Source: Neomicrococcus aestuarii (GTDB lineage: Bacteria; Actinomycetota; Actinomycetes; Actinomycetales; Micrococcaceae). From it: a stretch of 64,000 bases of DNA. Position numbers and translations under genes: made by a program. How positions within the stretch are numbered: the stretch's first letter is position 1; every line of letters starts with the position of its first letter. Under the pieces are notes generated by a model that had not been told where the DNA came from, searched no databases, and worked only from the letters and a program-made list of their open reading frames with translations. The stretch spans positions 248,001 through 312,000 of the forward strand of contig NZ_JACHDR010000001.1 in NCBI RefSeq assembly GCF_014201135.1, written 5' to 3'. Positions 50,215 to 60,208 of the stretch are shown here, piece after piece.

Positions 50215-51060
50215 ATGAGTTCTGAGTTCACGCTGGGGCCGGCAATGTTGTTTGTGCCGGGGGATCGTCCGGAGCGATTCGCGAAAGCGGCGGAGCGTGC
50301 GGATGCCGTGATTATTGATCTAGAAGATGCCGTGCTGCCAGGTGCGCGTGACACCGCGCGCGAGCACCTGGTCTCTACGCCGTTGGATCCGGAGCGCACG
50401 GTGGTGCGGGTGAATCCCGTGGGCTCGGACGATTTTGAGAAGGATCTTGCCGCGTTGCCTCGCACTCAGTATCGGTGGGTGATGTTGGCGAAGACGGAAT
50501 CGGCGGCGCAAACGCAATTGTTGGGTGGATTTTCGGTGCTGGCGTTGTGTGAGACGGCGTTGGGTGTGGCGCGGGCGCAAGAGATTGCGCAGGCGGAGAA
50601 CGTGGCGGCGTTGATGTGGGGTTCGGAGGATTTGGTGGCGTCGTTGGGTGGTTTTTCTTCCCGGTACGACGACGGCCGCTTCCGTGACGTTGTCCGCTTT
50701 AGTCGCGCTGCGGTTCATGTGGCGGCTCGAGCGTTCGGTAAGGAGTCCATTGATTCTGTGGTGCTCGATATTGCTGATCATGTGCGACTTTTGGGGGAGA
50801 GCCGGGATGCTTTTGCGACGGGGTACGTGGCGAAAGCGTGTATTCATCCGGGGCAGGTGTCGGTGATTCGTGACGGTTTTCGGCCGAGCAGTGAGCAACG
50901 GGAGTGGGCGTACCGTCTATTGGATGCTGCGAAGAATGAGCTGGGGGCTTTTCGTTTCGAGGGCGCCATGGTGGACGAAGTGGTGTTGAAGCGGGCCCGA
51001 CGCTTGGCGGGCCAATCCTTCAGTCTTGGCGTTGAAGAATCCACCTCTTGGCTCTCATAG
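50215..51060 (+). CDS. citE: CitE-like beta-hydroxyacyl-CoA lyase
   Basis: 281 residues from the ATG at 50215 (MSSEFTLGPAMLFVPGDRPERF); a longer frame from 50143 overlaps the MaoC gene and has no family residues. HpcH/HpaI-citrate lyase beta TIM barrel: LFVPGDRPERFAKA, the metal-binding IIDLEDAV, VRVNPVGS, and MWGSEDLVASLGG. It lacks citDF partners, so it is not a citrate lyase. The M. tuberculosis orthologue Rv2498c was reported to act in itaconate dissimilation and leucine catabolism, splitting hydroxymethylglutaryl- or citramalyl-type CoA esters. It is last in the operon. Confidence 0.88.
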   Translation: MSSEFTLGPAMLFVPGDRPERFAKAAERADAVIIDLEDAVLPGARDTAREHLVSTPLDPERTVVRVNPVGSDDFEKDLAALPRTQYRWVMLAKTESAAQTQLLGGFSVLALCETALGVARAQEIAQAENVAALMWGSEDLVASLGGFSSRYDDGRFRDVVRFSRAAVHVAARAFGKESIDSVVLDIADHVRLLGESRDAFATGYVAKACIHPGQVSVIRDGFRPSSEQREWAYRLLDAAKNELGAFRFEGAMVDEVVLKRARRLAGQSFSLGVEESTSWLS

Positions 51061-51363
51061 GTTTTTGCGAACCCGGCGTGATCTGCACAGAAAAAGGGGT
51101 TTTGATATACGTCGCATAAGGAACTTGGATTCAAACCCTAATTTAACTTGCCTATTCTCTGAGAAAGACTTGACCGTCTTCATCAGTTAGTACGCAGACT
51201 GCCCTGGGTGGAATCCACGTTCGTTCGATGGTGAGGGGTTGCATCAACATTCGACGTCGTGAGGACATGCTCGCAGCGAAGCGAGCCGAAATGCCAGCTT
51301 AGGAAACATATCAAAATGTATATGAAAAACAGTCCCGCGCTCGTAAGAGTTATTTGCCAAATT
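51061..51363. other. Intergenic region at the left edge of the accessory island
   Basis: About 300 bases with no supported gene and visibly lower G+C than the flanking operon. A run AAAAAGGGGTTTT at 51090-51103 may be part of a terminator. The sequence after it resembles nothing I recognise. Confidence 0.5.
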
Positions 51364-51512
51364 GGGGGGTGCCCCTATGTTGAAAGTCAAGCAACTCTTG
51401 GCTTTGGGATGTCATAGAGTGACCCGTCTCGGAACATGGCAAAGAGCACCGTGAGTTGGCGGTGAGCTAGCGCGATGAGTGCTTGATTGTGGCCGCTGGA
51501 CCTTGTACTCGC
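51364..51512 (-). mobile_element. IS110-family right-end remnant
   Basis: Read on the minus strand this is the last part of an IS110 transposase (GHNQALIALAHRQLTVLFAMFRDGSLYDIPKPRVA then stop). The typical right end follows: CATAGGGGCACCCCCC at the + strand positions 51364-51379. It is clearly related to, but diverged from, the two copies at 7-11 kb. The rest of the element is gone. It abuts an IS3 fragment near 51512. Confidence 0.75.
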
Positions 51513-52090
51513 CTCTAGTGATGCCATTCTCCCGGAGTTTGTCGGCGATTAACCAGCACCGAAATGCAGGGTCGTCGGCGTGGATGTCCAGGGCGGAGTG
51601 TTTCATGTGCGCACCGATCCAGTCGCGTTCCGACACCGGGCTGGCCTTCCAGTGGTAGTAGCCTTACTTGCTGAAACTCAACATCCTGCAGATCACCCCT
51701 ACGGGAACAGTGTCGGCGGCAAGATTCGAGGCAAGCGGGTAGATCATTTTGGGTTGGTGTCTCTGGCCAAATAGTCAGCCGCCCGACGCAGAATCTTATT
51801 CTCCGGCTGCAATAGACGATTGCACTTCTGCCGCTCCCGTATCTCGGCCGAAACCATCGCCGGGCCGGCCCGGATTCTTTATGGTCGGCGATAGTAGTCC
51901 AGCGCATCAACGTTGTGACCGAAAGCCCGAAATCCTTCGCGATCTGCGCCAGAGGCGCCTCCCCCCCCATGCGGGCGGCATCAATAACATCCAGGCGGAA
52001 CTCCGACCCATAAGTCGCGGGCATGGTCTACATACTTCCACGAGCACATGCTCGCTAGATCAGGGAGTCAACAGAACCTGGGACAGTCCC
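51513..52090 (-). pseudogene. IS3-family transposase remnant (orfA and 5' part of orfB)
   Basis: On the minus strand orfA starts at the ATG at 52024 (MPATYGSEFRLDVIDAARMGG, AQIAKDFGLSVTTLMRW), then loses its frame near 51880. The orfB start region is recognisable as ERDWIGAHMKHSALDIHADDPAFRCWLIADKLRENGI (51520-51640), again in a broken frame. The probable left terminus (CCCAGGTTCTGTTGAC type) lies upstream near 52090. The 3' half of orfB is replaced by the IS110 fragment. Dead element. Confidence 0.75.
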
Positions 52091-52214
52091 ACGGTGCAGC
52101 AAACTGGGCCTGACTCTCGGCATCCTATAGCTTTCGAGCCATGAGAGACGCATCAGTCCTCCATTGATCTTCTGAGTGCTGACCGGGTTGGTTTTGCGAT
52201 GAATAATCAAAACC

Positions 52215-52245
52215 TTGACCTTTCTTCTGGAGCTATGTGTATGAT
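52215..52245 (+). promoter_or_regulatory. Candidate promoter of export cassette 1
   Basis: TTGACC (52215-52220) and TATGAT (52240-52245) are spaced 19 bases. They are followed by AATCACA, which is also found after the -10 of cassette 2. The gene starts 43 bases further on. Confidence 0.45.
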
Positions 52246-52287
52246 TCCAATCACAATGTAGTTCCGTCGATAGTAATTGGGGGCCCA

Positions 52288-52626
52288 GTGAAAAGACGAC
52301 TCGCTAGATCTTCAATTGCAATTCTGTTCGCATCCTTGGTGGCCGTCTCCGTTCCAGCGGCCTCCCACGCGGCTGTGGTTGAAAATGGGACTGTCAGCTG
52401 TTCCGGCAAATATGGATGGGTTAAACACCGCGTGCAAGGACCGACTCGAGCCGTACTTGCGCCGGGGCTTTCGACTTCTAGAACTGTATATACCTATAAC
52501 CTCAGTTCGAGCGTCTGGTACACCGGAGCGAACGCCGGGGCAGCGGGCGGAGGATATTGGGAGGTCTATTCTTCAACGGCCATCGATAACGCTTATACTT
52601 CTGGCTATTGCCAAACGTTTGGATGA
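52288..52626 (+). CDS. Small secreted two-cysteine protein (candidate cassette substrate)
   Basis: 112 residues from a GTG at 52288; an upstream start at 52237 overlaps the promoter. A basic N-terminus and hydrophobic core (SSIAILFASLVAVSVPAASHA) form a signal peptide with likely cleavage after Ala-x-Ala. The mature part of about 83 residues is rich in Gly, Ser, Tyr and Trp and has exactly two Cys (VSCSGKYG near its start and GYCQTFG at the end), well placed for one disulfide. I recognise no family; a bacteriocin (for example lactococcin-972-like) or surface protein is possible. The ATGA overlap with the lipoprotein gene and the ABC genes downstream suggest it is exported or guarded by this cassette. 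Confidence 0.7.
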   Translation: MKRRLARSSIAILFASLVAVSVPAASHAAVVENGTVSCSGKYGWVKHRVQGPTRAVLAPGLSTSRTVYTYNLSSSVWYTGANAGAAGGGYWEVYSSTAIDNAYTSGYCQTFG

Positions 52627-53162
52627 TTACTATTTTGAAATCGCCGAATTGGTCTTGGATGATTTTTGCCACTTTATTCACTCTTGGCATCGGAGCTTGC
52701 GCTCCTGCCCAGTCCACGCCGACACGTGACGCTGAGTTCACCGGATCCGCCGTCGAGTACCAGACTGGTTTTGAGCAATGCTTAGGTGGCAAGGGGTATG
52801 AAGTGTCAGCGGGCGACGCTAAAGGTCGCCCCGAGTCGGTGGTTGTACCCGTCGGAGTTAACACGCGGGAAGAGTCAAAAGCGTTTTTTGACGCAATGGA
52901 AGCATGCACAAATGAACTTGCACCGCGTCCGGTGGTTGACACCGACGCAGAAGTTTCGGCCTTCTATAGGAAATGGATAGAACGCTGGGATTGCTTAGCA
53001 GGTCAGGGATACGACGTGGGTAGTCGTCTCACTGAGGCAAGCTTTCGGGACAAGTTTCGCGATAGAACGCTCAATTCCACTCCACAAGAGCTACTCTCGA
53101 CCGAACAGCAGGAAAATGCATATCTAGCTTGCCCTATTTCTCAGGATGAGTTTTGGGGTTAA
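52623..53162 (+). CDS. Lipoprotein of export cassette 1
   Basis: 179 residues from the ATG at 52623, which overlaps the upstream stop (ATGA). Lipoprotein signal: IFATLFTLGIGAC with the lipid-carrying Cys near residue 23. The mature part contains two similar units, QCLGGKGYEV and DCLAGQGYDV, plus two other Cys (MEAC, YLAC), four in all. The pattern C-L-x3-G-(Y/F) recurs in the lipoprotein of cassette 2. No function is known. It could be an immunity or substrate-capture protein for the secreted product upstream. Confidence 0.7.
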   Translation: MITILKSPNWSWMIFATLFTLGIGACAPAQSTPTRDAEFTGSAVEYQTGFEQCLGGKGYEVSAGDAKGRPESVVVPVGVNTREESKAFFDAMEACTNELAPRPVVDTDAEVSAFYRKWIERWDCLAGQGYDVGSRLTEASFRDKFRDRTLNSTPQELLSTEQQENAYLACPISQDEFWG

Positions 53163-54238
53163 CCTTGCGAAAATTGCCCTCACGTTGGGCCACGACAGCG
53201 TTTTTTTCTGTATTGCTCTTAGCGGTGGGTCTGTTGGGTGGCTGGTCTCTCCAACAAGTCTTCGGTTCAGCCAGGACAGCGAGCACAGCAGATCAAGCAA
53301 CGGTCACGGTCCAGCAAGGAAGCGTTGGCTCGACGGTCTTGTTGCCAATGCAAGTGGCGTGGGAGTCGCACGAAGTAGGCGTCAACCAAGCCGTTGGCGT
53401 GGTTACCGAAATCTCCAAGAAAGACGGTGACACAGTAGCGGCAAATGATGTGCTGTACCTCGTTGACGAGGTGCCGGTCATTGCGGCTCAGGGCGTGATC
53501 CCCATGTTTAGAGACATTATTCCTGACATGCGGGGACGTGACGTGGGCCAGCTTCAACAGTTATTGCAGGAAGCTGGATTTTTGAAGCGAGAAGCACGAA
53601 GTGGTTCCGCAGATGAAGCCACCGTCACGGCCATCAAACAGTGGCAAAAAGCCCACAAACAACCGCAAACCGGAACCGTGTCTCGTGCATCTATTATTTT
53701 TCTTCCAAAGTTGCCGGTGACTCTGCGTGCTGGGACGGACGAGTTGAAACTTGGATCCAGCCTTGTGGGTGGAGAGCACCCGCTGGCAGCAATATCTAGC
53801 CAGCCTACATTCACAATATCGGGAACGTCCGCTCAGTTGGCGCGTCTACCTGAACAAGCGGAAGTCACTTTCCAATTTGGTGGACATGACTTCAAAGGCA
53901 TTTTGGGTCCCGCGCGCGAAAATCAGGAAGCTGGAAATAGTCAGGCTACTGTCCTTTCACCAGGCGGCGCCAAAAACGTTTGTGAAGACAACTGCAGTGC
54001 CTTTCCTCGTACGGGTGCCACCAAGTTGCAGGCCAAAGTCTTAGTTCTTCCGACACAAGATGGGCTGACTGTTCCAACCGCCGCCCTGATGAGCACGCCA
54101 GCAGGAAAGACTGTTCTCGAAACCGAAGACGGAGAGGTTTTCGAAGTTTCCGTAGTTCAAGAAGCCAACGGAATTTCGTTGATTACGGGGGCTCGTGAAG
54201 GACAGGAAGTCAAAGTTCCATCCCAGATTGCACCGTAG
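53153..54238 (+). CDS. Peptidoglycan-binding membrane-fusion adaptor, cassette 1
   Basis: About 361 residues from a TTG at 53153; a TTG four codons later is also possible. One N-terminal helix (AFFSVLLLAVGLLGGWSL) anchors an extracytoplasmic HlyD-like protein. A PGBD-type unit (DMRGRDVGQLQQLLQEAGFL...ATVTAIKQWQKAHKQPQTGTV) is inserted near residues 125-175. A beta-barrel-type region follows with the loop NVCEDNCSAF, a C-x3-C pair also found in the cassette 2 adaptor. Such adaptors link an ABC permease to the wall in Gram-positive actinobacteria. It overlaps the lipoprotein gene and touches the ATPase gene. Confidence 0.82.
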   Translation: MGLTLRKLPSRWATTAFFSVLLLAVGLLGGWSLQQVFGSARTASTADQATVTVQQGSVGSTVLLPMQVAWESHEVGVNQAVGVVTEISKKDGDTVAANDVLYLVDEVPVIAAQGVIPMFRDIIPDMRGRDVGQLQQLLQEAGFLKREARSGSADEATVTAIKQWQKAHKQPQTGTVSRASIIFLPKLPVTLRAGTDELKLGSSLVGGEHPLAAISSQPTFTISGTSAQLARLPEQAEVTFQFGGHDFKGILGPARENQEAGNSQATVLSPGGAKNVCEDNCSAFPRTGATKLQAKVLVLPTQDGLTVPTAALMSTPAGKTVLETEDGEVFEVSVVQEANGISLITGAREGQEVKVPSQIAP

Positions 54239-54885
54239 TGGACGCCTTACAACTCGCCGTTAGGGATTTGAACTTCGGCTACACCTCTCAAGACCTCATT
54301 ATTCGCGACTGGGAGCATGACTTCGAGGGCAAAGAAGTAGTAGCTCTGACAGGCCCTAGCGGCAGAGGCAAATCCACCTTGCTGTACCTTTTGGGCCTGA
54401 TGCTCAGTCCTTTGAGCGGCCACATTATGCTGGACGGTGAAAACGTCGGCGCACTCAACGACGCCGAACGAGCCGCTCGGCGAGCCCAAAAATACGGATT
54501 TGTCTTTCAAGACTCTGCACTAGATCCCACTCGAACAGTCCTAGACAACGTGCTGGAAACAACTCTGTACCGTGGCGTCAGTCGGGAAGAGCAGACGCCG
54601 CGCGCGTTAGAACTTCTTGACGCTTTTGGGGTCTCGTTGAGAGCTACCCATAAACCAGGACAAATTTCAGGTGGTCAGGCACAGCGCATTGCTCTGTGTC
54701 GCGCGCTCTTGTCCACCCCTCAAGTGTTGCTATGCGACGAACCAACCGGAAATCTGGACGCTGCTTCGGCATCCTCTGTTATCAGCGGCATTCGAGATCA
54801 CGCTGCCAGCGGTGCCATAGTCATCATTGCGACCCATGACCCTTTTCTCATGGACCATTGCGACCGAAGAGTGGAGCTGACATGA
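54238..54885 (+). CDS. ABC transporter ATP-binding protein, cassette 1
   Basis: 215 residues from a GTG that shares a base with the adaptor stop. All ABC motifs are present: Walker A GPSGRGKST near residue 40, Q-loop VFQDSALDP, signature ISGGQAQRIAL near residue 141, Walker B VLLCDEPTGNLD and H-loop ATHD. It is of the MacB/LolD type (short ATPase serving FtsX-like permeases). It would drive export or mechanotransmission rather than import. It is coupled to the permease by an ATGA overlap. Confidence 0.93.
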   Translation: MDALQLAVRDLNFGYTSQDLIIRDWEHDFEGKEVVALTGPSGRGKSTLLYLLGLMLSPLSGHIMLDGENVGALNDAERAARRAQKYGFVFQDSALDPTRTVLDNVLETTLYRGVSREEQTPRALELLDAFGVSLRATHKPGQISGGQAQRIALCRALLSTPQVLLCDEPTGNLDAASASSVISGIRDHAASGAIVIIATHDPFLMDHCDRRVELT

Positions 54886-55961
54886 AACTTGGTCCGCTCT
54901 TCGGGGAGGCGCTCAGGAGCGCACGTAGCCAGAAGGTGCCCTCGCTACTAGCAATTCTGCTCATCGCAGGCTTGTGCGTGACGGTGCTCTTGACATCGGG
55001 GCGTGCCGTGGGTGCGCAACAGTCCGTACTGGGCAGCATTGATAACATTTCGGCTCGACAACTGATTGTCACGGCACCGGAGGACGCCGGGCTGCGTTCC
55101 GCCGTCATCGACCGCATTGCGCAGTACAGCTTAGTGACTAAAGTGTTTGCTTTTGGCCCTGCTGTGGACGCAAGGAACACGGTAATTCAAGGAGGAGATG
55201 CCGTCCCTTTCCGCGTCCTTTTTCAGCCGTCAGCAACGCACAGCGCAAATGACGCACTTGGTTCGGCCAGGGTGTCAACCCCAGCTCAAGAAACTTTGGG
55301 AATGCAGCTTCCTGCAGGCGCGGTTGTTACCGCTTCCGGTGATCTGCTGGGCGTAATTGGCTCTTTCGAACCGTCCGTATTTACAGAGCCTTTTGAACCG
55401 CTGTTAGTGTCTGAAAAGCAGGCAAACGCCAATGAGAGGATCGCGACGCTTGTGATCACGGCGCGATCTGTGGCCGACCTTGACCGCGTCGAAGAATATG
55501 TAGCAACGGTCTTAGGTGTGCAATCAATGCAGGGCGTCAGCATTCAAAAAGACGCGTCTGTCGCGCAATTGCGGGCTACGGTAGACAATCAGTTGGGCAG
55601 CTTCAGTTCGGGGCTGGTCGCGGCAATATTTGGCCTCACGGGGGTGCTGGTTGCCGCGGTCCTCTACGCTTTGGTTTTCTTGCGGCGCAAGGATTTTGGA
55701 CGACGACGCGCCCTCGGCGCCAGCCGAACCCTCATTTTGGCGCTCATCCTAATTCAAATAGGAATTTTGGCTGCGGGCGGTGCCGTGCTCGGCTCATTGG
55801 TTTCGGCACTTTGGCTGTCTTCAACAGGCGACCCTCTTCCGCCGACCCCGTACTTTGCAGGAGTCGCGATACTCGCGGTCATTACCGCGCTCATCGCTGC
55901 CGTACTTCCAGCACTGTCGGCGGCCCGACGCGATCCCATCCGTGAGCTCCGCGTGGCCTAA
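54882..55961 (+). CDS. FtsX/MacB-like ABC permease, cassette 1
   Basis: 359 residues from the ATG at 54882. One N-terminal helix (VPSLLAILLIAGLCVTVLLTSG) is followed by an extracytoplasmic domain of about 200 residues. Three C-terminal helices come next, with the FtsX-like cytoplasmic coupling segment FGRRRALGASRTLILALILIQ. The C-terminus ARRDPIRELRVA is typical. Type VII ABC proteins of this kind do not move substrate through themselves but push on partners outside the membrane, fitting the adaptor and the secreted proteins around it. Confidence 0.88.
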   Translation: MKLGPLFGEALRSARSQKVPSLLAILLIAGLCVTVLLTSGRAVGAQQSVLGSIDNISARQLIVTAPEDAGLRSAVIDRIAQYSLVTKVFAFGPAVDARNTVIQGGDAVPFRVLFQPSATHSANDALGSARVSTPAQETLGMQLPAGAVVTASGDLLGVIGSFEPSVFTEPFEPLLVSEKQANANERIATLVITARSVADLDRVEEYVATVLGVQSMQGVSIQKDASVAQLRATVDNQLGSFSSGLVAAIFGLTGVLVAAVLYALVFLRRKDFGRRRALGASRTLILALILIQIGILAAGGAVLGSLVSALWLSSTGDPLPPTPYFAGVAILAVITALIAAVLPALSAARRDPIRELRVA

Positions 55962-56207
55962 TATTCAGTGAGTCGCACGTGGTTTGATGGTTATTTTGCG
56001 TTCGAATACTGGGCGTTCCTGTCTGTCGCGGTTACCATCGGATATTGGCTTGAAGACAGAGTGCGTTTGATCACCCGTTGTTGATTCAGTCGGTGTCTAC
56101 TGAGGAACCTTTGAACGGGGGTGCCGAAATTTCCGATTTCCGGAACACCCAGCGGCGTGCCGTTGAATCGTTGAAACGGCTGAAAAGCGAACTGTTATTG
56201 CATTTCT

Positions 56208-56248
56208 TTGACGATCCCCGCTTTGGATTCTATGATGTGAATCACATC
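56208..56248 (+). promoter_or_regulatory. Promoter and palindromic operator of cassette 2
   Basis: TTGACG (56208-56213) and TATGAT (56231-56236) have a 17-base spacer. Overlapping the -10 is a perfect 15-base palindrome GATGTGAATCACATC (56234-56248), well placed for a repressor. Confidence 0.6.
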
Positions 56249-56277
56249 TTGAATGTTTGAAATTGGGGGACCGCTAT

Positions 56278-56730
56278 ATGCAAAAGCACTGGTTTGCAGG
56301 TGGGGTCGGTCTCGCTTTTGTCCCGTTTGTAGCCAGTGCATCTAGCGCAGCTCCTGAACTTGCTACGAACTCCACGCGTCCCTCAAACTACGCAGGGTAC
56401 GAGTCTCAATACGGAGATTGGCGGTCTAATTTTATTGAGTGCGTCCGAAAATATGGTGGAGATGCGAAGGTAGCCGCAGACAATGAAGGAATTGTGGGGG
56501 CCATAATCAAGGGGCGCCCAACCTCGAAAGACGGGCTCGACCAAGGATGCGTTTCAGAAGTGGGCGCTCCGCCCGAGCTGCCACCTTCGTCACCCGAATT
56601 TTGGCAGGGTATGTATGCGGTCCATGTAGAAAGCGGCGGAAATCTTGATGAGGCTCTTCGGAGTTGTCCGCAGCCGAAACCGCGCGAAGCTGAAGAAAAA
56701 GGTCAGCAATTGGCAGGCCAAAGCTCATGA
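56278..56730 (+). CDS. Shortened paralogue of the cassette 2 lipoprotein
   Basis: 150 residues from the ATG at 56278 (GGGGGA upstream). The mature part aligns with the lipoprotein at 59621: PSNY-x2-Y, Y-x-DWR, IEC-x-R-(K/R)YG-x-DAK, KGRP and the final CPQPKP block. Relative to that paralogue it lacks about 38 residues, including the C-L-R-S-K-G-F unit. Its signal region (GVGLAFVPFVASASSAAPE) has no lipobox Cys, so it would be secreted rather than lipidated. It may be a released form, a decoy, or decaying. It overlaps the next gene by ATGA. Confidence 0.7.
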   Translation: MQKHWFAGGVGLAFVPFVASASSAAPELATNSTRPSNYAGYESQYGDWRSNFIECVRKYGGDAKVAADNEGIVGAIIKGRPTSKDGLDQGCVSEVGAPPELPPSSPEFWQGMYAVHVESGGNLDEALRSCPQPKPREAEEKGQQLAGQSS

Positions 56731-57842
56731 CGACAAGCGGGGAATCAGTCCGCCGAGGTACCTCCCGACGGTGGAAGGTTGGCATCGCATGGGCGCTGTC
56801 ACTTGTAGTTGCTCTCGGGGTTGGATGGTGGGGTGCCCTCCAGGCAACAAATCCTCCTACTATTGCAGCACCCGCTCATACGAGAGCGAGTGTCGAAGCG
56901 GTCAACGGTTCCGTCAGCGTGAGACAGTCCTACGGAATTGATGCGTCTTGGGCTTCATCAATTGTGGCGACTGGTGGTAACACGGGCACAATAACTACAA
57001 TCGATATGCCGTTGGACGGTCAGTCAACGGTATCCGGCAGCCGCGTCTTTTCGGTGGATTTGCAACCAATCTTTGTCATTAATGGCAAGATTCCGTCCTT
57101 CCGTGATCTCTCGAGCGGGGTAAGCGGAGCGGACGTTCAGCAGCTTCAGGAGTTCCTTGTCAGCAAGAGATACCTCGGTACAACTTTTACAAGAACGCGT
57201 TTCGACAATGCCACCAATACTGCTGTTTCCAAGTGGGCTAAGGATGCGGGATTCAGCTATGACGGCACATTACCGCGATGGCGAGTGATCTATGTGCCAG
57301 ATCTCCCAAAGGTCCTCGTTCCTCTGGAATCCCTTCGTGTGGGAGCGCAAATTTCACAAGGTCAAGAACTACTTCAAGGACCTGTGGCGGATCCCGTCTT
57401 CAGTTTCCGGGTGCTTCCCGAAAACGTTTCAAAGATCACTCCCGGGCTTAAGGTGGTTATCGATACTTCCGGCGAGCAGTGGTCCGGACGTGTTTCTCGC
57501 TTGGAAAATACCGCCGGCGACGTGTCCGAGACCGTGGCCATACTGGAGCCAGAACAAGGACAAGCCTCCATCTGTGGGGGTGAGTGTTCTAGAGCGGTGA
57601 AGCTTGGAGACAAGACAGTTTTGCCGGGAATTATTGAATTGATTCCAGAACAGACTGGCGTTCAAATTCCCACGGCAGCAGTACGATCGGATGCCAACAA
57701 TAAGACCTTTGTCTTCATTTCCGATGGCGTTCGTCGTGAAATCACGCTTAAAGTTTCGGACCAAGGAAAGAGCATTGTTGAAGGAATTAATGTGGGGGAT
57801 CGAGTCCTGCTTGGTGACGCGAGCGAAGAGCAGACGCCTTGA
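56727..57842 (+). CDS. Peptidoglycan-binding membrane-fusion adaptor, cassette 2
   Basis: 371 residues. An N-terminal helix (VGIAWALSLVVALGVGWWGAL) is followed by an extracytoplasmic adaptor laid out as in cassette 1. The PGBD-like unit has IPSFRDLSSGVSGADVQQLQEFL near residues 115-140, then a barrel-type domain with the loop SICGGECSRAV, the same C-x3-C position as in cassette 1. The sequence is clearly diverged from its counterpart, so the duplication is old or the cassettes were acquired separately. The start overlaps the lipoprotein-like gene, and the stop overlaps the ATPase start. Confidence 0.82.
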   Translation: MTTSGESVRRGTSRRWKVGIAWALSLVVALGVGWWGALQATNPPTIAAPAHTRASVEAVNGSVSVRQSYGIDASWASSIVATGGNTGTITTIDMPLDGQSTVSGSRVFSVDLQPIFVINGKIPSFRDLSSGVSGADVQQLQEFLVSKRYLGTTFTRTRFDNATNTAVSKWAKDAGFSYDGTLPRWRVIYVPDLPKVLVPLESLRVGAQISQGQELLQGPVADPVFSFRVLPENVSKITPGLKVVIDTSGEQWSGRVSRLENTAGDVSETVAILEPEQGQASICGGECSRAVKLGDKTVLPGIIELIPEQTGVQIPTAAVRSDANNKTFVFISDGVRREITLKVSDQGKSIVEGINVGDRVLLGDASEEQTP

Positions 57843-58483
57843 AGGTCAGCATTTCTACACTCGAACACCGATATCAGCCTGGTATGGCTCCAACGATTTC
57901 CGCGATCTCACGTACCTTTGAACCGGGTACCCTGACGTGTATCACTGGGCCGTCTGGGTCTGGAAAATCTACTCTGCTCTACATCATGGCGTTGATGCTC
58001 ACTCCCAGTGCCGGAATTATTCAGTGGGGAAACACATCAGTCCAGCAACTCAACGATGCTTCACGTTCGCGATTGCGGGCTATGCACGCGGGATTCGTTT
58101 TTCAGGACGCAATGCTGGACTTGTCCAGAACAGCTTTGGACAATGTTGTGGAAGCTGCTCGGATCGCAGGAATCTCACACAACGTAGCCGTTGAAGATGC
58201 GTTCCGTCTCTTAGAGCGCTTCGGCGTTGCGCATCGTGCCCAGCACAGGCCCGCTGAGCTATCAGGTGGTCAGGCTCAACGAATTGCGTTATGCAGGGCT
58301 CTGGTCAAAGATCCGGATATCATTTTCGCCGACGAACCCACGGGAAATCTAGATTCTGAATCAGCCGAAATTGTTTGGGATACGCTTCATCAAGCTGCCG
58401 ACGCTGGTGCAACGGTAATCGTCGCCACCCATGACAGGGACCGGGCGGAAAAGCATACGCATCACTTGAGGCTCGGCGAATGA
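57839..58483 (+). CDS. ABC transporter ATP-binding protein, cassette 2
   Basis: 214 residues from a TTG that overlaps the adaptor stop. Walker A GPSGSGKST, Q-loop VFQDAMLDLSR, signature LSGGQAQRIAL, Walker B IIFADEPTGNLD and H-loop ATHD are all intact. MacB/LolD type, close in layout to the cassette 1 ATPase (both have SGGQAQRIALCRAL). It should energise the FtsX-like permease that overlaps its end by 4 bases. Confidence 0.93.
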   Translation: MKVSISTLEHRYQPGMAPTISAISRTFEPGTLTCITGPSGSGKSTLLYIMALMLTPSAGIIQWGNTSVQQLNDASRSRLRAMHAGFVFQDAMLDLSRTALDNVVEAARIAGISHNVAVEDAFRLLERFGVAHRAQHRPAELSGGQAQRIALCRALVKDPDIIFADEPTGNLDSESAEIVWDTLHQAADAGATVIVATHDRDRAEKHTHHLRLGE

Positions 58484-59604
58484 GCGAAAAATCGAGTTCA
58501 GGGCACCCCCAAACGAGCTATTTTGTCCGAGACGCGCTTTTGAGACTGCGTCGACCTCTTGTCCCGACGATCGTTTCCATCTTCATTGTTTTCGCGGCTA
58601 CGCTAGCAATTTTTGCCACCACTGGTTTGGCAATGGCGAGTCAGCAACGAGCGCTGGACAACATCAATTCTCCAGAGGGACGTCTGATCACTATCACTGA
58701 CTCTCAAGGAAGTGCCGGGATCTCCACGGAATCTCTTCGGCTAATTTCTAGCCTGGAAGACGTGGAATGGGTATTTGGGATGGGGCCGGCAACAGATGTC
58801 CATAACCTCAACGTTTCTGATGGCGAAATAGTGCAAGCGCGGCGGGTTTTCGGTGACTTCCCGCCTGTCATTGACTCGCCGGTTGCCATGAACCTGAAGG
58901 ACGGTCAGGCAGTTGCGCCCGTTGAAGTGCTGAGGAAACTTGGTATGGCGGATGACGTGGGGACGGTCTCCAGTCGCACGCTGACGGGAGACATCGCTGG
59001 TCAATTTCATGCCGAATCGCCATTGACGACGCTCAACAAAAACGTCTTGGTAGTCTCGGATGGCAAATCAAGCGGTAGCAATATTATGACTCTTTGGGTC
59101 AGCGTCAAAGACGTTCGTAGCTTGGAAATGACATCCAAAGCCGTGATGGAAACACTGGTGTCCACCCAGCCGGAAAAGTTGCGCGTAACCATGACAAGCG
59201 AGCTTGCCAGGTTGAGCCAGGACGTTCAAAACGAGATGGCGAGTACCGCAAGACAGACGGTGACCGGCCTTCTGTTAGCTTCAGCTCTGTTGTTGAGCGC
59301 AGTCCAGTTTGGGCGCGTGTCGGGTCTTGCAAAAGATATCGGAAGAACACGGGCGCTCGGTGGTTCTCGAAGTGCTGTGGTGGCCCAAATTCTCATCAAC
59401 GCAGGACTTTCTGGGGTGTTAGGAGCCTTCCTCGGAATCGTCGCCGGATCCATCCTGACGTTGACGCTCGCCGGCGGAATTCCATCTTTCGGATTCAGTG
59501 TGGGCGTTGGCATCTTGATGGTGTTGGCCGCGATTTTTGGATCGATTCCGCCTGCAGTTCGTGCGGCATATATGGACCCGGTCAAAATTCTTCGAGTGCC
59601 GTAG
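58480..59604 (+). CDS. FtsX/MacB-like ABC permease, cassette 2
   Basis: 374 residues. N-terminal helix (PLVPTIVSIFIVFAATLAIFATTG), a large extracytoplasmic domain, then three C-terminal helices with the coupling segment IGRTRALGGSRSAVVAQILINAG. The C-terminus is AAYMDPVKILRVP. It shares with cassette 1 the pattern ASQQRALDNINSPEGRLITITD versus GAQQSVLGSIDNISARQLIVTA after the first helix, so the two permeases are true paralogues. The lipoprotein gene follows after 16 bases. Confidence 0.88.
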   Translation: MSEKSSSGHPQTSYFVRDALLRLRRPLVPTIVSIFIVFAATLAIFATTGLAMASQQRALDNINSPEGRLITITDSQGSAGISTESLRLISSLEDVEWVFGMGPATDVHNLNVSDGEIVQARRVFGDFPPVIDSPVAMNLKDGQAVAPVEVLRKLGMADDVGTVSSRTLTGDIAGQFHAESPLTTLNKNVLVVSDGKSSGSNIMTLWVSVKDVRSLEMTSKAVMETLVSTQPEKLRVTMTSELARLSQDVQNEMASTARQTVTGLLLASALLLSAVQFGRVSGLAKDIGRTRALGGSRSAVVAQILINAGLSGVLGAFLGIVAGSILTLTLAGGIPSFGFSVGVGILMVLAAIFGSIPPAVRAAYMDPVKILRVP

Positions 59605-59620
59605 GTGAAGGGAAGAGTCG

Positions 59621-60208
59621 ATGAACAGATTTCCACTGCAAGGAGTCGCGAAGAAGCTTGCGTTTGTATTCGTGGCCATTGCCACCGCTGGTGTTGCGGT
59701 GACTGGTTGCTCTGCACCCCAAGAAAAGGCGGCGAGTACCACTCCCAGCAACTACGACGAATACAATGCGCTCTACGCCGATTGGCGAACAAAATACATT
59801 GAGTGCGCCAGAAGATACGGAGCGGATGCAAAAATATCTGCGGACGGCGAAGGCATCGATAAGCCCTATGCAAAGGGGCGGCCTCTTTCCGAAGAAGGCT
59901 TGGATGCGGACTGCATCAAAGAAGTGGGCAAAGAGCCGCCACTTCCGCCCGCTGACGAAAGCTATTTCCATGGTCTGTATGCGCTACTTCAAGAAAGCGC
60001 AACGTGTCTTAGAAGCAAGGGATTCCGTGTTTCGGAAGCACCCAGCGAGGACGTCTGGGTTGAAACATATAGTGGAACCTCCTGGTATCCGTGGCTAGAA
60101 ATCATGAACACTGGCGGGGATGCCGATGCCGCACTTCGCGCGTGCCCTCAACCCAAACCCATGGACATTGAACGTAAGGGAAAAGAGTGGGCAGCCACAA
60201 AGGGATAA
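59621..60208 (+). CDS. Lipoprotein of export cassette 2
   Basis: 195 residues. Lipoprotein signal: LAFVFVAIATAGVAVTGC with the lipid Cys near residue 30. The mature part has four Cys (IECARRYG, DADCIKEVG, TCLRSKGF, RACPQPK) and conserved Trp and Tyr residues. It is the full-length relative of the protein at 56278 and shares the C-L-x3-G-(Y/F) unit with the cassette 1 lipoprotein. Presumably it sits on the outer face of the membrane beside the adaptor. Last gene of the island; dxr begins 8 bases after it, so read-through into dxr is possible. Confidence 0.72.
   Translation: MNRFPLQGVAKKLAFVFVAIATAGVAVTGCSAPQEKAASTTPSNYDEYNALYADWRTKYIECARRYGADAKISADGEGIDKPYAKGRPLSEEGLDADCIKEVGKEPPLPPADESYFHGLYALLQESATCLRSKGFRVSEAPSEDVWVETYSGTSWYPWLEIMNTGGDADAALRACPQPKPMDIERKGKEWAATKG

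What the first reader, a model, noticed from the sequence alone, without database searches (positions are those of the whole stretch)
53948..57600. A C-x3-C loop is kept in both adaptors while the rest diverged
The cassette 1 adaptor has NVCEDNCSAF and the cassette 2 adaptor SICGGECSRAV at the same place in the outer domain. These are the only Cys in either adaptor. The lipoproteins each carry four Cys besides or including a shared C-L-x3-G-(Y/F) unit. Conserved Cys outside the membrane usually form disulfides, so the system may depend on oxidative folding or thiol exchange.
Basis: seen in the sequence. Interest (0 to 1): 0.5.

Follow-up and report, generated by a model that had tools for sequence, protein, structure and literature searches.

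The report
Paired-cysteine loop in peptide-linked pumps
Two cysteines in a small loop of these cell-surface pump adaptors, probably joined by a disulfide bond, are kept in a whole family of actinobacterial adaptors that sits beside a cysteine-rich lipoprotein and often a small secreted peptide, which looks like an uncharacterised peptide toxin and self-protection system.

Summary
Both adaptors have only two Cys, as C-x3-C. All 63 distinct relatives found in Actinomycetota keep the pair (61 Cx3C, one Cx4C, one Cx5C); after reduction below 60% identity, 49 of 49, and the two Cys are among nine invariant columns. The nearest relatives (24 of 24 loci) lack it; on a tree it needs one change. AlphaFold puts it at a hairpin tip in a MacA/BesA-like fold with a peptidoglycan-binding domain. 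The genome encodes two VKORs and a DsbA-like oxidase.

The adaptor belongs to a cassette: an unnamed secreted peptide (two Cys, one near each end), a lipoprotein of two Cys-Cys repeats, the adaptor, an ATPase and an FtsX permease. The lipoprotein's Cys are older than the adaptor pair; the peptide was found only with pair-bearing adaptors. I read it as a bacteriocin-like peptide with lipoprotein plus YknXYZ-like self-protection, its outside parts oxidatively folded. Disulfides and toxicity are inferred: no distance was measurable and no assay exists. Thiol exchange is unsupported. One of the window's three 'lipoproteins' is degenerate.

The parts
52288..52626 (+). Small secreted peptide (Sec-type signal, mature about 80 aa, two Cys near its two ends); ORF opens at 52237, likely GTG start 52288
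   Evidence: no Pfam/NCBIfam family; family profile hit in own genome
52608..53162 (+). Lipoprotein 1: lipobox Cys31 plus Cys58, 100, 129, 175; two C-L-x3-G repeats
53153..54238 (+). Adaptor 1: signal anchor, MacA/BesA-like fold with PG_binding_1 domain (residues 127-178)
53981..53995 (+). Adaptor 1 Cys277-x3-Cys281 loop
54238..54885 (+). ATPase 1 (LolD/MacB/FtsE-type ABC_tran)
54858..55961 (+). FtsX-type permease 1
   Evidence: PF02687 over cut-off
56257..56730 (+). Degenerate lipoprotein-like gene 2: no lipobox Cys, three Cys, second repeat cut
56727..57842 (+). Adaptor 2, same architecture
   Evidence: (PG_binding_1 below cut-off)
57573..57587 (+). Adaptor 2 Cys283-x3-Cys287 loop
57839..58483 (+). 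ATPase 2
58480..59604 (+). FtsX-type permease 2 (weak Pfam match, below cut-off)
59621..60208 (+). Lipoprotein 3: lipobox Cys30 plus Cys62, 98, 129, 175; modelled all-helical

Best explanation
The C-x3-C is most likely a structural disulfide that staples the tip of a hairpin inserted in the barrel region of a MacA/YknX-type, peptidoglycan-binding adaptor. The insert arose once, in a branch of Actinomycetota systems in which a small Sec-secreted peptide with its own end-to-end Cys pair is also found. The cassette (peptide, repeat lipoprotein, adaptor, ATPase, FtsX permease) most likely makes a bacteriocin-like peptide and protects its producer: Sec exports the peptide, a VKOR/DsbA pathway closes its disulfide, the anchored lipoprotein sequesters it at the membrane (as NisI does with nisin), and the adaptor-ATPase-permease drives it off the membrane through the wall (as YknXYZ is thought to do with SDP). 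The stapled loop would be a rigid recognition surface for the peptide or lipoprotein. Shown: conservation, single change on the tree, cassette linkage, presence of oxidase genes, predicted fold of the adaptor. Inferred: disulfide bonding, toxicity, immunity, what the loop binds.
For: 63 of 63 distinct subfamily adaptors keep the pair, with spacing 3, 4 or 5, 49 of 49 at <60% identity, one change on the tree. 0 of 24 sister loci have it. With a filter blind to Cys number, a two-Cys peptide of this type was found upstream of a lipoprotein in 18 of 58 subfamily loci and 0 of 24 sister loci; Fisher p 0.001. A peptide profile searched in 392 genomes hit 16, and 18 of 19 places lie within 2.5 kb of a pair-bearing adaptor. 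The lipoprotein has two Cys-Cys repeats. Lipoprotein genes are multiplied in several loci. VKOR x2 and DsbA-like. MacA/BesA fold, Z 11.7-12.9. Precedents read in passages: YknXYZ protects against Sec-exported, disulfide-bonded SDP; MacAB exports Dsb-oxidised STII (PMC5985334); NisI/NisFEG (PMC8538875).
Against: No disulfide was seen or its geometry measured. No peptide of this family has a known activity. 40 of 58 subfamily loci gave no such peptide under the strict filter, so the pair does not need a neighbouring peptide. Cassette 2 of this window has no peptide of its own that I found. The branch uniting pair-bearing adaptors has modest support (91/44). The peptide profile was trained on peptides from these same loci, so its linkage is partly by construction. 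The lipoprotein model resembles no solved fold found here, so the NisI comparison is functional only.
Confidence: 0.5

Rival explanations
1. Envelope-maintenance or drug-efflux module. The adaptor-ATPase-permease-lipoprotein set serves a general envelope task (as in sister systems without the peptide); the peptide is a secreted accessory, not a toxin, and the disulfide merely stabilises the adaptor.
For: The lipoprotein and transporter exist without the peptide and without the Cys loop in 24 sister loci, mostly with a multi-Cys lipoprotein; 40 of 58 subfamily loci showed no such peptide.
Against: The peptide is sequence-hypervariable, patchy (profile hits in 15 of about 34 genomes with the subfamily adaptor), truncated in the sister species while the transporter genes stay intact, and lipoprotein copies multiply beside it: the usual look of a toxin-immunity locus.
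Confidence: 0.27
2. Dedicated exporter with hand-over. The ABC machine moves the Sec-translocated peptide through the wall, and the adaptor loop and peptide cysteines meet during export, possibly by transient mixed disulfides.
For: MacAB-TolC exports Sec-translocated, Dsb-oxidised STII (PMC5985334, passages); the peptide was found only with pair-bearing adaptors.
Against: Many pair-bearing adaptors have no detected peptide; spacing varies and the loop has no redox-like features; a cell with one membrane needs no exporter beyond Sec.
Confidence: 0.15
3. Redox-active or metal-binding site rather than a staple.
For: Two invariant Cys in an exposed loop.
Against: Spacing varies 3 to 5, no invariant His/Asp/Glu nearby, no CxxC, no thioredoxin or cytochrome domain.
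Confidence: 0.06

Closest known systems
YknWXYZ of Bacillus (MacA/MacB-like protection against SDP; PMC5985334 passages, PMC4887032 search listing)
   Same: Adaptor + ATPase + FtsX-type permease; adaptor reported to bind peptidoglycan; protects against a Sec-exported peptide with one disulfide
   Different: No C-x3-C loop and no four-Cys repeat lipoprotein mentioned in the passages read; here the adaptor carries a PG_binding_1 domain; the peptides here were not compared with SDP
NisI + NisFEG lantibiotic immunity (PMC8538875, passages)
   Same: Anchored lipoprotein made of two similar units plus an ABC transporter acting from outside
   Different: Lipoprotein here modelled all-helical with Cys repeats; nisin is a modified lantibiotic
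Lactococcin 972 family cassettes (PF09683; mediterrocin, PMC12345188, passages)
   Same: Sec-secreted small peptide next to ABC genes; some actinobacterial PF09683 members also have two Cys near their ends
   Different: No PF09683 match, profile comparison negative; no DUF1430-type seven-helix immunity protein among the ten window genes scanned
BesA / MacA adaptors (PDB 4kkt, 5nik)
   Same: Predicted fold, Z 12.9 and 11.7
   Different: Peptidoglycan-binding domain in place of MacA's alpha-hairpin; extra Cys hairpin

Membership tests
Membrane fusion / periplasmic adaptor superfamily | Lipoyl, beta-barrel and membrane-proximal fold | tested here: met
   Foldseek E down to 7e-13; VIA Z 12.9 BesA, 11.7 MacA
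Membrane fusion / periplasmic adaptor superfamily | Encoded with a MacB-type ATPase and FtsX permease | tested here: met
MacA in the narrow sense | Alpha-helical hairpin | tested here: not met
   Region 116-182 is a peptidoglycan-binding domain like the SleB N-terminal domain, Z 11.3, rmsd 1.4
YknWXYZ | Protects the producer against its own Sec-exported peptide | not testable with these tools
   needs bench work
YknWXYZ | YknW membrane partner in the operon | not tested
   no YknW model was searched; the operon has lipoproteins and no further gene
Lactococcin 972 | PF09683 domain | tested here: not met
   0 of 10 peptides matched; no PF09683 hit in own genome; HHalign probability 0.3%
Lactococcin 972 | Sec-type signal and small unmodified mature peptide | tested here: inconclusive
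   signal judged by a hydropathy rule, not SignalP; modification unknown
NisI-type immunity lipoprotein | Lipid-anchored, made of two similar units | tested here: met
   lipobox by eye in two of three window genes; repeat halves align at sequence level, P 1.2e-6
NisI-type immunity lipoprotein | NisI/SpaI fold | tested here: inconclusive
   no NisI/SpaI row among Foldseek or VIA matches
Thiol-disulfide exchange (CxxC) proteins | CxxC in a thioredoxin-like domain | tested here: not met
   Cx3-5C, no such domain
Structural disulfide | Cys kept as a pair | tested here: met
   63 of 63 with, 24 of 24 sister loci without
Structural disulfide | Sulfurs within bonding distance | not testable with these tools

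The most novel reading that the evidence does not exclude
An undescribed, Actinomycetota-wide class of bacteriocin-like peptides (two Cys, one at each end, hypervariable between) with a dedicated immunity apparatus in which every outside part, peptide, repeat lipoprotein and adaptor loop, is disulfide-bonded, so that the weapon and its antidote both depend on the VKOR/DsbA pathway.
Probability: 0.4. Interest if true: 0.75.

Novelty: new variant of a known kind. Interest (0 to 1): 0.56.

Why it matters
The Cys loop gives a one-line signature for a clade of MacA-like adaptors and, with it, a way to find a large unnamed family of secreted two-Cys peptides that Pfam and NCBIfam models do not cover. 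If they are bacteriocins, Actinomycetota hold a widespread, sometimes plasmid-borne, oxidatively folded weapon with two-layer immunity. It also makes testable what an adaptor does in a cell with one membrane, and whether a wall-bound adaptor recognises a peptide through a stapled loop.

Tried and rejected
Lactococcin 972 homology of the peptide: suggested by eye (G-T-x-x-C start, Cys near the end in two actinobacterial PF09683 proteins), but Pfam, NCBIfam and profile comparison gave nothing; kept as a likeness only. PDB sequence search of the peptide: nothing useful. Fold of the lipoprotein: no match at Foldseek E <= 0.001, best VIA Z 3.4; absence noted, not used as proof of a new fold. Adaptor and lipoprotein Cys as exchange partners: rejected as necessary, because sister systems keep the lipoprotein Cys without the loop and G458 has a four-Cys lipoprotein next to an adaptor with no Cys. 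Heme or metal site: no conserved ligands. Faster evolution of adaptor 1 against the sister species as selection: rejected, dS rises too, so exchange or older divergence of the operon's first half is likelier. Literature: nothing on this cassette in ten searches; only openly licensed PMC papers are held. I read the outline and passages of PMC12328743 (a different peptide class) and passages of PMC12345188, PMC5985334 and PMC8538875; the rest were seen as search listings only.

Selection and dropped rows: peptides in the first list were picked with a two-to-four-Cys filter, so only the Cys-blind rerun is used for counts; that rerun gave 22 candidate ORFs, of which 18 are two-Cys peptides of this type, three I judged lipoprotein-like or unrelated (L124, L126, L130) and one has five Cys (L125). 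Contexts that repeat the same place or a near copy were left out (L086-L089, L138, L155). L159 (broken adaptor gene, pair present) was left out of the tree. In the sister set 4 of 24 loci (L189, L198, L199, L203) had only unclear lipoprotein candidates. L157 and L159 were first labelled 'none' by my script and corrected after reading the alignment. The adaptor profiles contain the Cys columns, a small bias; the score gap (208 against 127 bits) is far wider than two columns.
Full report
WHAT WAS CLAIMED AND WHETHER IT IS THERE. Both adaptors contain exactly two cysteines, as C-x3-C, at the same aligned place: residues 277/281 of the 361-aa protein at 53153-54238 and 283/287 of the 371-aa protein at 56727-57842. 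Two of the three lipoprotein genes carry a lipobox Cys and four more; the third (56257-56730) has lost the lipobox Cys and half of the second repeat and keeps three.

IS IT MORE THAN CHANCE. A search of 197 genomes of the same family found matches in 41; 16 genomes had matches stronger than 1e-30, and every such adaptor, ours included, had the pair. The family is Micrococcaceae by the named contigs that match G180, G010 and G093 (Arthrobacter, Galactobacter; family assignment of these genera from general knowledge). A profile search of 396 genomes of the phylum and 396 of the order showed a sharp score gap: in the order, 34 genomes have adaptors at E <= 1.3e-61 and the next group starts at 6e-37. 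All 63 distinct adaptors above the gap carry the pair: 61 as Cx3C, one Cx4C (L069), one Cx5C (L157) (L159 is a broken gene that still shows the pair). They come from at least twelve families, three of them (G526, G252, G303) outside the order. After reduction below 60% identity 49 remain, median identity 32%; all 49 have the pair, and the two Cys are among nine invariant columns. In 45 of 49 there is no other Cys after residue 60. The loop consensus is G-G-x-[VIL]-C-G-x-x-C-x-x-[LV]-P, with only the Cys invariant. On a maximum-likelihood tree with 14 pair-less relatives the trait needs one change (support 91/44; one change in 92% of bootstrap trees). A named plasmid of Clavibacter sp. A6099 carries one too.

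WHERE THE LOOP SITS. AlphaFold2 on ten admissible sequences gave mean pLDDT 83. Cys277 opens a short helix (278-283) at the tip of a hairpin between strands 262-268 and 290-308. The whole is a membrane fusion protein: best solved matches BesA (Z 12.9, rmsd 5.9, 227 aligned) and MacA (Z 11.7, rmsd 6.2, 254 aligned), with a peptidoglycan-binding domain (116-182; SleB domain Z 11.3, rmsd 1.4, 66 aligned) where MacA has its helical hairpin. Sister adaptors lack the insert altogether. I could not measure the Cys-Cys distance because no coordinates are given out.

WHAT SURROUNDS IT. The same set of genes recurs: small peptide, lipoprotein, adaptor, ATPase, FtsX permease. A lipoprotein of this family was found within the fetched stretch in 57 of the 58 non-duplicate subfamily loci, usually just upstream of the adaptor and sometimes nearby in the other orientation; the exception, L073, is a short contig cut near the adaptor. 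Of 83 lipoprotein sequences 73 show Cys at all four consensus columns; the four sister ones among the other ten also have a fourth Cys when read directly. The two halves, each C-L-x3-G followed by a Cys, align as repeats (HHalign P 1.2e-6, probability 91%), so the likely bonds are first-second and third-fourth; this is inference. The lip3 model is all-helical, pLDDT 79, with no clear solved relative.

THE PEPTIDE. Upstream of the lipoprotein often lies a small ORF with a signal-like start and about 65-85 mature residues. In 26 that I collected, both Cys are kept, the last one to six residues from the end, with 59-74 residues between; only those two columns are invariant. That collection was Cys-filtered. 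The Cys-blind rerun found two-Cys peptides of this type in 18 of 58 subfamily loci and in 0 of 24 sister loci, Fisher p 0.001. A profile of the 26 searched in 392 genomes of the order hit 19 places in 16 genomes; 18 places lie within 2.5 kb of a pair-bearing adaptor, and the odd one (G908) is the weakest at E 0.009 (places compared). Most of these hits are training sequences; the useful part is the near absence of hits in genomes without the adaptor. No Pfam or NCBIfam family matches. Two halves of the family align to each other over 72 columns (probability 71%, P 4e-5), while comparison with lactococcin 972 proteins is negative.

ORDER OF EVENTS. Sister systems (24 loci) have the transporter and, in 20 of 24 clearly, a multi-Cys lipoprotein, but neither the adaptor pair nor the peptide. 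So the lipoprotein cysteines came first; the adaptor loop came later, once, in the branch where the peptide is found. G458 (L075), placed just outside, has the lipoprotein, an adaptor without Cys, and a peptide-like ORF that is out of frame with its likely signal, so whether the peptide came before the loop is open.

OXIDATIVE FOLDING. The genome has two VKOR genes (C1:943279-943674 and C1:834379-834777) and a membrane-anchored DsbA-like protein with CVYC (C1:1137294-1137737). That Actinobacteria fold exported proteins through MdbA is from a search listing (PMC9974433).

MECHANISM. By likeness to YknXYZ (protection against Sec-exported, disulfide-bonded SDP; adaptor binds peptidoglycan), to MacAB (export of Sec-translocated, Dsb-oxidised STII) and to NisI/NisFEG (lipoprotein plus ABC immunity) (PMC5985334, PMC8538875; passages), I read the cassette as a secreted antimicrobial peptide with two-layer self-protection. 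In favour: hypervariable patchy peptide, multiplied lipoprotein copies (up to four in L091), truncated peptide beside intact transporter genes in the sister species, low-GC setting (52-57% against 57-62% in most flanking windows), plasmid carriage. Against: no activity is known, many loci lack a visible peptide, and cassette 2 here has none that I found. The loop's own role, a rigid recognition surface, is inference.

NOVELTY. The kind (MacAB-like peptide protection) is known; the disulfide hairpin, the repeat lipoprotein and the peptide family are, as far as ten full-text searches of open PMC papers show, not described.

Noticed in passing
L188, L190, L195, L199, L203 (sister adaptors): Five of 24 sister adaptors carry a different Cys pair, 46 residues apart, the second at or near the C-terminus (for example 309 and 355): a separate gain of a possible disulfide.
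   Followed up: no
L076 12915-13118 (sister species G027): The peptide gene is cut to 67 aa with one Cys while lipoprotein, adaptor, ATPase and permease are intact.
   Followed up: partly
window 52608-55961 against L076: Synonymous divergence falls along operon 1 (lip1 0.23, ad1 0.18, ATPase 0.11, permease 0.05) while operon 2 and dxr are at 0.02-0.09, hinting at exchange of the operon's first half.
   Followed up: partly
window 51000-60000: GC drops to 52-57% between flanks of about 57-62%, as in an acquired stretch.
   Followed up: no
L176 1318-1665, L179 1489-2103: Actinobacterial lactococcin 972 (PF09683) proteins with two Cys near the two ends of the mature part, like the peptides here although no homology was detected.
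   Followed up: partly
L091 1415-6228 (Serinicoccus): Two pair-bearing adaptors and four lipoprotein genes in about 7 kb, resembling an immunity array.
   Followed up: no
L125 5924-6253: A peptide-like ORF of the same kind with five Cys instead of two.
   Followed up: no
L159 6409-7580: Adaptor split over two frames, a probable broken gene, in G916.
   Followed up: no
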